This document shows positions 58,246-61,699 of a stretch of 64,000 bases of DNA, piece by piece. This stretch comes from Syntrophomonas sp. Lineage in GTDB: Bacteria > Bacillota > Syntrophomonadia > Syntrophomonadales > Syntrophomonadaceae. Made by a program: the position numbers and the translations under genes. Each line of letters begins with the position of its first letter. Positions within the stretch are counted from its first letter, which is position 1. The notes under the pieces are model-generated. The model was not told the origin of the DNA and searched no databases. It was given only the letters and a program-made list of their open reading frames with translations. The stretch spans positions 72,475 to 136,474 of the forward strand of contig JAENYG010000007.1 in assembly GCA_016841875.1 (NCBI GenBank), in the 5' to 3' direction.

Positions 58246-58965
58246 ATGAAAAGCAAAAATGCTCAAATTTCTATAGCTTTGGTTTGCCTGGTTATGGGTG
58301 TGCTGTTGGCCATCCAATTTAAAGCCACCGAAAATTATCAGACGGATCTGATACCGGAGAGACTTGATGAATTAACCCAAAAACTAAATACGGTAACTCA
58401 GCAAAGAGACGCTCTGGAAGAAGAGGTATTGTCATTAAGGGATAAATTGATAAATGTGCGTGAAACGGACAAGGCCATGAAAGACCTGCAGGATGAATTA
58501 CAGAAGGCCCAGATGGCGGCTGGCACTATTCCGGTTGAAGGTCCAGGTGTTGCAGTTTCTCTTGATGATAGCACCCTTAGCATCCAGCCTGGAGATAATG
58601 CTAATTATTCTATTGTACACGATACCGATTTATTAATTTTAGTAAATGAACTAAAAGCTTCAGGAGCTGAAGCTATAGCTATAAATGGTGAACGACTTAC
58701 TGCCATGTCAGAGATTCGGTGCGCAGGCACCTTGATTCTGGTTAACTGGACCAAAATCGGACCTCCTTTTCTTATTGAGGCCATTGGAGATCCTGATATG
58801 CTCCAGAGCGGACTTATGTTAAATGGAGGTCACCTGACCACCCTGAAATTTTTGGGACTGCAGACCAGCGTGCAAAAAATGGAAAACATTAAACTTCCGG
58901 CCTATAGCGGTCCCACGAAGATAACATACGCAGTTCCTTCTCAGTATAAAGAAAAGGCGGAGTAG
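58246..58965 (+). CDS. DUF881 family protein
   Basis: 239-residue protein found next to ftsQ/sbp in many Firmicutes and Actinobacteria. One N-terminal transmembrane helix (about 7-25), a coiled coil (about 40-90, LTQKLNTVTQQRDALEEEVLSLR), then the DUF881 fold (VEGPGVAVSLDD, VHDTDLLILVNELKASGAEAIAINGERL, and the C-terminal YAVPSQ). Envelope-associated, function unknown; the location suggests a role in division or sporulation. Confidence 0.88.
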   Translation: MKSKNAQISIALVCLVMGVLLAIQFKATENYQTDLIPERLDELTQKLNTVTQQRDALEEEVLSLRDKLINVRETDKAMKDLQDELQKAQMAAGTIPVEGPGVAVSLDDSTLSIQPGDNANYSIVHDTDLLILVNELKASGAEAIAINGERLTAMSEIRCAGTLILVNWTKIGPPFLIEAIGDPDMLQSGLMLNGGHLTTLKFLGLQTSVQKMENIKLPAYSGPTKITYAVPSQYKEKAE

Positions 58966-58969
58966 ATTT

Positions 58970-59305
58970 ATGTGGGTATTAGTGATTTTTTGTTTATTGG
59001 TGGGACTAGTATTAGGTTTTCAATTACCAGTACTTCTGCCCCTGGTATATACCAAGTACATGTCTATAGCAGTCCTGGCAGCTCTGGACTCTGTTTTCGG
59101 CGGTATTCGAGCTTATATGGAAGAAAGCTTTGATAATATTATTTTCCTAAGTGGTTTTTTTGTAAATATGCTTTTAGCTGCAGGTCTGGCCTATATGGGC
59201 GACCGACTGGGAGTAGAACTTTACCTGGCCGCGGTAATAGTGTTCGGTGTACGCTTGTTCAATAATTTAGGTATAATTCGTCGATATCTATTAAAAAAAC
59301 ACTAA
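58970..59305 (+). CDS. sbp: Small basic protein Sbp (DUF1290)
   Basis: 111-residue integral membrane protein with three hydrophobic segments (about 1-22, 26-46 and 57-100) and signature VYTKYMSIAVLAALDSVFGGIRA and NMLLAAGLAYMGDRLGVELYLA. DUF1290 sits between DUF881 and ftsA/ftsZ in Firmicutes. Role unknown. GTG-free ATG start four bases after the DUF881 stop. Confidence 0.9.
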   Translation: MWVLVIFCLLVGLVLGFQLPVLLPLVYTKYMSIAVLAALDSVFGGIRAYMEESFDNIIFLSGFFVNMLLAAGLAYMGDRLGVELYLAAVIVFGVRLFNNLGIIRRYLLKKH

Positions 59306-59385
59306 ATAAAATTCTGCCTAATTAAAGGAATAGCAAAGCATTTGTGGTATTTTAAAGTATAAGTATTCATAAGGGGTGCGTTGTT

Positions 59386-60612
59386 ATCAAGAAGAGAAAT
59401 ATAGTTGTTAGCCTGGACATCGGCAGTAGTCTGATTAAAGCCGCCATGGGAGAGGTTAACTACGGTGAGGATATTCATATATTAGGGATAACAACGGTAG
59501 ATAGTCAGGGTTTAAGAAAAGGCAATATCATTGATATAGAAACTGCAGCCAGATCCATAGATGAATGTCTGCATAAACTGGAGAGAATGGCTGGAGTAGA
59601 AATAAGCAATGCTCTGGTAGGCTATTCAGGCAGCAGCATTAATACTCTTAATAACCGTGCGGTGGTAGCAGTAGGTAATTCCAATTATGAAATAACCTCA
59701 GAGGATAAGGCCCGTGTACTGCAATCCGCTCGAAATGTAGCCCTTCCCCTGGACAGGTGTGTAGTGCAGACTATTGAGAGACAATATATTATTGATGGAT
59801 ATGACGGGGTAAAGGATCCCATTGGTATGGTAGGCAGCCGCTTGGAAGCTGAAGTAACCATTGTTATTGCGGCCACCGCTGCGGTACAGAATCTGCAGAG
59901 AAGTACCGGGAAAATCGACCTGCAAATCAACAAACTGGTATATAATTCCATTCTTGCCGCTGAATCTGTATTGCTTCCGGCTGAGAGAGAAATGGGGGTA
60001 GCCCTGATTGATATTGGAGGGGGAACTACAGATATAAGTTATTTCGAGGGTGGAAACCTGTTATGTGCCTCAGTGCTGCCGGTGGGCGGTGATTATATTA
60101 CCAGAGATCTGGCTATCGTATTAAAAACTTCATTAGAAGATGCAGCGAAAATCAAGGAGACTGATGGGGTGGCCGGGCCATCCCAGGCCTCTGATGATGT
60201 TATGGTTAATGTACATAACCTGCATGGAAAAGAGATCAGGCAGGTATCCCAGCAGGTAATAGCCGACATCATTTATGCCCGGGTACTGGAAATGATGGAA
60301 ATGATATATACGGAATTAAAACAGTTTAATTGTTTGGATAAGCTGCCGGGTGGAATTGTGCTTACGGGTGGCGGAGCTCATCTGGCAGGGATCGAAGAAA
60401 TAATGGAAGACTATATGGATATTACGGTAAGATCCGGTATACCCGAAAACTTAAGAGGTGTTCAATCAGATATTAGCCGCCCTGAATATGCGACGGTTAT
60501 CGGGGGACTAATTTATTCTGGTAAAAATATCGATATAAGTTATGAGAACAAGCATGGTGTTTCAGGCCTATTAAATAAGGTCAACTACTGGTTAAGAGAA
60601 TTTTTTGGGTAA
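59386..60612 (+). CDS. ftsA: Cell division protein FtsA, with an apparent AUC start codon
   Basis: 408-residue actin-fold protein that tethers FtsZ to the membrane. The essential phosphate-1 motif VVSLDIGSSLIKAA lies upstream of the first in-frame ATG (59446), so translation must begin earlier. Between the in-frame stop at 59353 and 59446 there is no ATG, GTG or TTG in frame. ATC at 59386 follows AAGGGGTG by seven bases and gives a perfectly normal FtsA start, (M)KKRNIVVSLDIGSS. Other motifs: VALIDIGGGTTDISYF, GGDYITRDLA, GGIVLTGGGAHL, and a C-terminal amphipathic helix (VNYWLREFF). Confidence 0.93.
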   Translation: MKKRNIVVSLDIGSSLIKAAMGEVNYGEDIHILGITTVDSQGLRKGNIIDIETAARSIDECLHKLERMAGVEISNALVGYSGSSINTLNNRAVVAVGNSNYEITSEDKARVLQSARNVALPLDRCVVQTIERQYIIDGYDGVKDPIGMVGSRLEAEVTIVIAATAAVQNLQRSTGKIDLQINKLVYNSILAAESVLLPAEREMGVALIDIGGGTTDISYFEGGNLLCASVLPVGGDYITRDLAIVLKTSLEDAAKIKETDGVAGPSQASDDVMVNVHNLHGKEIRQVSQQVIADIIYARVLEMMEMIYTELKQFNCLDKLPGGIVLTGGGAHLAGIEEIMEDYMDITVRSGIPENLRGVQSDISRPEYATVIGGLIYSGKNIDISYENKHGVSGLLNKVNYWLREFFG

Positions 60613-60631: not shown

Positions 60632-61699
60632 ATGCCATTAGATTTTGATGTAGATATGCAGCAGTTTGCGAACATCAAGGTTATCGGTATTGGGGGAGGC
60701 GGCAACAACGCCATTAACCGCATGATTGAAGCGGGGCTGAAAGGGGTTGAATTTATTGCCGTTAATACTGACGCACAGGCATTGTATCTTTCCCGTGCTG
60801 AAAAGAAAATACAGGTAGGTGGAAAGCTAACCAAAGGTTTAGGAGCAGGGGCAGATCCGGAAATTGGCATGAAAGCTGCCGAGGAAAATTCCGATGAAAT
60901 AAAAGCAGCTCTGCAAGGTGCTGATATGGTTTTTGTTACTGCCGGTATGGGTGGTGGTACTGGAACCGGAGGAGCACCAATTGTGGCCAGGATAGCCAGG
61001 CAAATAGGTGCATTAACAGTTGGAGTAGTAACTAAACCATTTACTTTTGAAGGCAGAAAAAGAAACAACCAGGCTGAGAATGGAATCAGTACTCTAAGAG
61101 CAGAAGTTGACAGCCTGATTACCATACCCAATGATCGTCTTTTGCAGGTAGTAGATAAAAATACTGCCTTTAATGATGCATTTAAGATAGCGGACGATAT
61201 TCTCCGGCAGGGAGTACAGGGTATATCTGATTTGATTGCAGTACCCGGGGTTATCAATTGTGATTTTGCCGATGTTCAGACAGTGATGCAGAATACTGGT
61301 TCTGCATTAATGGGAATAGGGCAGGCCAAGGGTGAAAACCGGGCCGCAGAAGCTGCTAGATTGTCGATTTCAAGTCCCCTGCTGGAAACGTCTATCGAAG
61401 GTGCCAAAGGTGTATTATTTAATATCAGCGGTGGAAGTGATCTAACTTTGTTTGAAATCAATGAAGCTGCGGAAATAATTCACCAGGCTGCTGATATGGA
61501 AGCCAATATAATATTTGGTGCGAATATTGATGAAGCCTTGAACGATGAGGTGCGGGTTACAGTAATAGCAACCGGGTTTAATACGGTAAAGCCATCTATA
61601 ATGGGTGAAACCTCTAAGAATAGGGGCATGGAGCCACCTCCAACTTTTCTAGATAAAGGTGACCTTGAAATACCTCCTTTCTTAAGACGAAATAGGTAG
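60632..61699 (+). CDS. ftsZ: Cell division protein FtsZ
   Basis: 355-residue tubulin-like GTPase forming the division ring. Seen: [16 protein letters not shown] (about 12-27), the tubulin signature [12 protein letters not shown] (about 106-117), [10 protein letters not shown] and the T7 loop [11 protein letters not shown] (about 205). A short linker leads to the C-terminal peptide [12 protein letters not shown] that binds FtsA. RBS GAGGAGG. Stands 19 bases behind ftsA; a strong terminator follows. Confidence 0.99.

What the first reader, a model, noticed from the sequence alone, without database searches (positions are those of the whole stretch)
59356..59460. ftsA appears to start at an AUC codon
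The actin-fold phosphate-1 motif (LDIGSSLIKA) is in frame upstream of the first ATG at 59446. No ATG, GTG or TTG exists in frame back to the stop at 59353. The only start with a good ribosome binding site (AAGGGGTG, seven bases away) and a family-like beginning (KKRNIVVSLDIG) is ATC at 59386. Non-AUG starts of the AUU/AUC kind are rare and, in infC, used for translational control. Here it could hold FtsA low relative to FtsZ. A one-base change from ATG is the simple alternative.
Basis: partly seen in the sequence, partly recalled or inferred. Interest (0 to 1): 0.6.

Follow-up and report, generated by a model that had tools for sequence, protein, structure and literature searches.

The report
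Conserved AUU/AUC start codon of ftsA
In a whole family of syntrophic bacteria (Syntrophomonadaceae) the gene for the cell-division protein FtsA begins not with ATG but with the rare, inefficient start codon ATT or ATC, kept across 20 genera like the one that controls initiation factor IF3, which suggests that FtsA output is deliberately held low and may be tied to the state of the translation machinery.

Summary
In the window ftsA (59386-60612) has no in-frame ATG/GTG/TTG between the stop at 59353 and the phosphate-1 motif; ATC 59386 follows the Shine-Dalgarno AAGGGGTG (59371-59378) by 7 nt. It is not a sequencing error. In 46 of 47 readable ftsA genes of the GTDB family (20/20 genera, FtsA identity down to ~39%) the aligned codon is ATT (36) or ATC (10), never ATA or ATG; one has GTG. 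The sister families start with GTG or ATG, and 60/60 sampled outgroups of the phylum use TTG (41), GTG (14) or ATG (5). Parsimony gives one gain and one loss. Neighbouring genes are normal: ftsZ is ATG in 45/45. infC (IF3) in the same family also starts ATC/ATT. Body Ile codons are 37% ATA, so 0 ATA in 46 points to selection on start function. Best explanation: a conserved IF3-sensitive start that limits FtsA relative to FtsZ. The start assignment is near certain (about 0.95); the regulatory role is inferred. AUU/AUC starts are known (infC, pcnB, cvfC1; GTC in sigR), but I found none reported for ftsA: a new member of a known kind.

The parts
59324..59352 (+). Conserved promoter-like element AAAGGAATA-N11-GTGGTATTT, resembling a SigH (early sporulation) promoter, in the sbp-ftsA gap; would give a leader of about 26 nt
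   Evidence: Alignment of 47 upstream regions; match to the SigH consensus RNAGGAWWW-N11/12-RNNGAATWW with one mismatch (consensus from own knowledge). B. subtilis ftsAZ has a sigma-H promoter site (PMC12421865). Not tested experimentally.
59371..59378 (+). Shine-Dalgarno AAGGGGTG, 7 nt from the start codon
   Evidence: Sequence; conserved in the family
59386..59388 (+). ATC start codon of ftsA
   Evidence: ATT/ATC in 46/47 family genomes, 20/20 genera; no canonical in-frame codon between the stop at 59353 and the motif
59386..60612 (+). ftsA coding sequence (408 codons plus stop)
   Evidence: TIGR01174 347 bits; PDB FtsA matches
59413..59442 (+). Actin phosphate-1 motif LDIGSSLIKA, upstream of the first ATG (59446)
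   Evidence: Translation and alignment to FtsA structures
60632..61699 (+). ftsZ, ATG start with GAGGAGGT Shine-Dalgarno (control)
   Evidence: ATG in 45/45 family loci
58970..59305 (+). sbp (DUF1290 small basic protein), ATG start, next gene upstream (control)
   Evidence: ATG at the expected place in 46/48

Best explanation
ftsA of this organism and of the whole family (Syntrophomonadaceae by named relatives) is translated from a non-canonical AUC/AUU start codon placed 6-8 nt after a conserved, start-proximal Shine-Dalgarno (shown by sequence and conservation). The codon was gained once at the base of the family and has been kept by purifying selection (inferred from tree, codon choice and control genes). 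It most likely works as infC does. 30S complexes on AUU/AUC are destabilised by IF3, so FtsA is initiated at a small fraction of the AUG rate. This keeps FtsA well below FtsZ, which is made from AUG on the same strand, and makes FtsA output fall when free IF3 rises (inferred). Because infC in these genomes also starts with AUC/AUU, the two genes would share one control. The weak start is the extreme form of a phylum-wide habit of using weak ftsA starts, mostly TTG.
For: 46/47 family ftsA genes have ATT/ATC at the aligned codon in 20/20 genera; 31/47 have no canonical in-frame codon back to the stop, 17/47 none from the stop to the LD(I/V)G motif, and L044 has an in-frame TAG two codons upstream. 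No ATA or ATG in 46, although ATA is 37% of Ile codons in the gene bodies (Fisher p=1.5e-9; one per genus p=1e-4) and the Ile site five codons on is freely ATA/ATT/ATC/ATG/GTG. Tree: canonical to ATH 1 gain and 1 loss, ATT/ATC 5 switches. ftsZ ATG 45/45 and sbp ATG 46/48. The hslU start wanders between ATG, GTG, TTG and CTG in the same genomes. infC starts ATC 17, ATT 2 of 19. Outgroup ftsA: TTG 41, GTG 14, ATG 5 of 60; 20/20 TTG where ftsZ is ATG 12, GTG 5, TTG 3. Precedents: sigR GTC repressed by IF3, ATG change raises expression about 4-fold (PMC5472188); cvfC1 AUU and ccpN AUA at about 10% of AUG, with extended SD (PMC13009471).
Against: No protein or ribosome-profiling data for any member. 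Nine of 47 genomes have a canonical codon within 8 codons upstream. In five of these (L048, L015, L016, L019, L058) it is a GTG overlapping or abutting the SD; in L047, L041, L046 and L061 it could be a real replacement start. Genus 22 has an ATG five codons downstream, though far from the SD. IF3 dependence and any change with conditions are untested. The five observed switches alone would not exclude a transition bias. FtsA:FtsZ levels in these organisms are unknown.
Confidence: 0.8

Rival explanations
1. Sequencing or assembly error, or a one-strain mutation from ATG.
For: A single-base difference from ATG would explain one genome.
Against: The same codon class is found in 46 independent assemblies of 20 genera, including complete single-contig genomes G034 and G037.
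Confidence: 0.01
2. FtsA starts at a downstream canonical codon (ATG 59446 in the window) or at GTG/ATG codons 5-6 positions after ATT in some relatives.
For: Some genomes have GTG or ATG 5-6 codons after ATT, e.g. genus 22 (ATT ATC aaa aga aac ATG).
Against: ATG 59446 lies after LDIGSSLIKA and would remove the first strand and phosphate-1 loop. The downstream codons are not conserved, 17/47 genomes have none at all, and the SD would be about 22 nt away.
Confidence: 0.04
3. Translation begins at the GTG embedded in the SD (GGGGTGC) and shifts frame into ftsA.
For: GTG occurs near the SD in 42/47 genomes.
Against: Its distance to the ATT varies (10, 8, 9, 16, 3, 6 nt), so the frame differs; the ORF from it is 2-27 codons of unrelated length where out of frame; five genomes lack it; it would have no SD of its own. 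Sequence pairing to 16S explains GGTG.
Confidence: 0.02
4. The AUU/AUC start is real and maintained, but only as a fixed low gain set by codon and SD, without regulation by IF3 level.
For: Outgroups use weak but IF3-tolerated TTG, so low output alone may be the selected trait. cvfC1 AUU in S. aureus showed no media effect (PMC13009471).
Against: A simple low setting could be reached by many start/SD combinations, yet the AUU/AUC class never reverts except once. infC shares the start class.
Confidence: 0.4

Closest known systems
infC (IF3) AUU/AUC/AUA start, autoregulated by IF3
   Same: Non-canonical Ile-type start codon after a good SD, conserved over a clade; in this family infC itself starts ATC/ATT.
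   Different: ftsA encodes a divisome protein, so control would be of another gene, not feedback on IF3; ftsA has the SD AAGGGGTG rather than GGAGGTGA.
sigR GTC start in Streptomyces, repressed by IF3 (PMC5472188)
   Same: One gene of a same-strand pair held below its partner by a conserved rare start codon (GTC or GTT in 34/34 Streptomyces).
   Different: Different codon and genus-level depth, with experimental proof of IF3 control; here the depth is a family of 20 genera and there is no experiment.
cvfC1 (AUU), ccpN (AUA) in Staphylococcus aureus and ccpN in Bacillus (PMC13009471)
   Same: Conserved AUU/AUA starts with start-proximal extended SD; about 10% of AUG output.
   Different: Not cell-division genes; found by ribosome profiling.
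pcnB AUU in E. coli (Binns and Masters 2002, cited in PMC9410913)
   Same: AUU start that translationally limits a protein.
   Different: Poly(A) polymerase, non-essential, different clade.

Membership tests
FtsA (TIGR01174) | Match above the curated cut-off over the whole protein | tested here: met
   347 bits against 175.85, profile 2-367/371
FtsA (TIGR01174) | Actin phosphate-1 loop in the N-terminus, in frame | tested here: met
   LDIGSSLIKA upstream of the first ATG, aligned to FtsA structures
Genes initiated at conserved non-canonical AUU/AUC codons (infC class) | No canonical start compatible with SD and homology | tested here: met
   Window, and 31/47 family genes (window included) with none back to the stop
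Genes initiated at conserved non-canonical AUU/AUC codons (infC class) | Codon conserved over a clade against reversion to ATG | tested here: met
   46/47, 20 genera, one loss on the tree
Genes initiated at conserved non-canonical AUU/AUC codons (infC class) | Shine-Dalgarno at productive spacing | tested here: met
   6-8 nt spacing, conserved GGGGTG/GGAGTG
Genes initiated at conserved non-canonical AUU/AUC codons (infC class) | Initiation at this codon seen by proteomics or profiling | not testable with these tools
   No such data held
IF3-repressed start codons | Output rises in IF3 fidelity mutants or with ATG substitution | not testable with these tools
   Needs a reporter experiment
SigH-dependent ftsA promoter (B. 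subtilis ftsAZ type) | Conserved SigH -35/-10 at SigH spacing | tested here: inconclusive
   AAAGGAATA-N11-GTGGTATTT conserved, one mismatch to a consensus recalled from memory; no transcript data

The most novel reading that the evidence does not exclude
ftsA of Syntrophomonadaceae belongs with infC to an IF3-governed set of genes, so that division-protein synthesis is coupled to free IF3 and hence to ribosome state. This would be a direct translational link between growth and division in slow-growing syntrophs.
Probability: 0.35. Interest if true: 0.78.

Novelty: new member of a known kind. Interest (0 to 1): 0.62.

Why it matters
A non-canonical start codon kept across a family in a core divisome gene shows that AUU/AUC initiation is used beyond infC and a handful of other genes, for setting protein stoichiometry. 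Because common gene finders assume ATG/GTG/TTG, FtsA in these genomes is likely to be annotated with a truncated or wrongly extended N-terminus. It also makes testable a possible link between IF3, translation capacity and the FtsA:FtsZ ratio.

Tried and rejected
Rfam scan of 58900-60000: nothing. RNA structure around the start: no better than shuffled (z 1.22); the alignment fold gives -0.02 kcal/mol with no compensatory pairs, so no RNA switch is supported. SD-embedded GTG with frameshift: frame and ORF length not conserved. Downstream starts: not conserved and remove or crowd the motif. That scan is conservative and noisy: shadow ORFs appeared, and ftsA itself was not flagged (likely because of a non-conserved upstream TTG in G004 and the internal ATG). 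Literature: no paper holding both 'ftsA' and 'AUU start codon'; other searches gave precedents only for other genes.

Full report
WHAT IS THERE. ftsA lies between sbp (58970-59305) and ftsZ (60632-61699) in a murG-murC-murA-divIB-DUF881-sbp-ftsA-ftsZ-spoIIGA-sigE cluster (gene names by recognition of the translations). In the ftsA frame the stop is TAA at 59353. The next ATG/GTG/TTG is ATG 59446, which is already downstream of the actin phosphate-1 motif LDIGSSLIKA. AAGGGGTG (59371-59378) stands 7 nt before ATC 59386. The protein is FtsA by TIGR01174 (347 bits, cut-off 175.85), and solved FtsA structures align from residue 13 of P0001, that is upstream of the ATG.

RELATIVES. The window's genome has 54 family members among the held genomes, itself included; 48 gave an FtsA match. 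In the 47 genes with a readable 5' end, the codon aligned with ATC 59386 is ATT in 36, ATC in 10, and replaced in one (G026, with GTG one codon upstream), covering 20 of 20 genera. Thirty-one have no canonical in-frame codon back to the upstream stop, 38 have none within 8 codons upstream, and 17 have none anywhere between the stop and the motif. In G017 an in-frame TAG two codons before the ATT pins the start. In five genomes (L015, L016, L019, L048, L058) the nearby canonical codon is a GTG that overlaps or abuts the SD and so is a poor candidate. L047, L041, L046 and L061 may truly use a neighbouring GTG or ATG.

SELECTION. Isoleucine codons in the bodies of these ftsA genes are 44% ATT, 37% ATA and 19% ATC, yet no start is ATA (0/46; Fisher p=1.5e-9 ignoring relatedness; p=1e-4 with one independent draw per genus). 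The neighbouring Ile position (NIVV) is ATA 18, ATT 7, ATC 7, ATG 5 and others. A tree of FtsA without the N-terminal codons needs one gain of the ATH start at the base of the family and one loss; ATT and ATC interchange at least five times without any ATG. Sister families f2 and f3 start with GTG and ATG. Sixty outgroup genomes of the phylum all have a canonical start: TTG 41, GTG 14, ATG 5.

CONTROLS. ftsZ is ATG in 45/45 and sbp is ATG at the expected place in 46/48 of the same loci. murC, murA, divIB, DUF881 and spoIIGA have a canonical start nearby in all or all but one locus. The murG test was spoiled by a wrong expected start and is not used. hslU in the same genomes shows ordinary drift between ATG, GTG, TTG and CTG. 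A comparison of 138 gene pairs on the window's contig with G004 found no other clear case than hslU (CTG or ATA in the window's genus), though the scan is conservative. infC, the textbook AUU gene, starts ATC (17) or ATT (2) in 19 readable family members.

MECHANISM. Shown: a conserved AUU/AUC codon in start position with a conserved SD. Inferred: initiation there is inefficient and repressed by IF3. Basis: infC, pcnB, sigR (GTC; change to ATG raises a reporter about 4-fold, and IF3 mutants de-repress it; PMC5472188) and S. aureus cvfC1/ccpN (about 10% of AUG, with extended start-proximal SD; PMC13009471). FtsA is therefore expected to be made well below FtsZ. That outgroups use TTG for ftsA 20/20 times where ftsZ is mostly ATG suggests that low FtsA initiation is an old habit of the phylum, and that Syntrophomonadaceae have taken it further into the IF3-discriminated class. 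Whether IF3 level varies enough to make this regulation rather than a fixed setting is open.

UPSTREAM. The only other conserved block is AAAGGAATA-N11-GTGGTATTT at 59324-59352, which resembles a SigH promoter. B. subtilis has a sigma-H-dependent site in the ftsAZ promoter (PMC12421865). A transcript from it would have a leader of about 26 nt. No RNA structure is supported.

VERDICT. Observation confirmed; start-codon reading about 0.95; IF3-type translational limitation likely but unmeasured. New member of a known kind, notable because the gene is a core division gene and the conservation spans a family. Taxonomic names rest on the record titles. The SigH consensus, and the general statement that IF3 discriminates against AUU/AUC, rest partly on own knowledge and partly on the cited papers.

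Noticed in passing
G000:C38:146248 (outside the window; L266 and relatives L257, L260, L265, L276): hslU of the window's genus lacks a well-placed ATG/GTG/TTG start: TTAGGAGGCGTTA ATA CTG CAT AAC LTPREIV; CTG replaces the TTG used by most other genera of the family.
   Followed up: partly
window 59324-59352: Conserved SigH-like promoter AAAGGAATA-N11-GTGGTATTT directly before ftsA in nearly all family members.
   Followed up: partly
L147-L206, L227-L246: ftsA starts with TTG in 41 of 60 sampled outgroup genomes of the phylum, and in 20/20 of a subset in which ftsZ is mostly ATG: weak ftsA starts look phylum-wide.
   Followed up: partly
L047 (G026), L041 (G053), L046 (G043), L061 (G005): Family members with a canonical GTG or ATG within 1-7 codons upstream of the ATT/ATC position; possible recent losses of the non-canonical start.
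   Followed up: partly
L049 (G011), L058 (G048): ftsA alignment is interrupted or begins late (G011 match starts at residue 58; G048 match is in two pieces with an open frame of 480 aa); possible frameshift or insertion, or assembly error.
   Followed up: no
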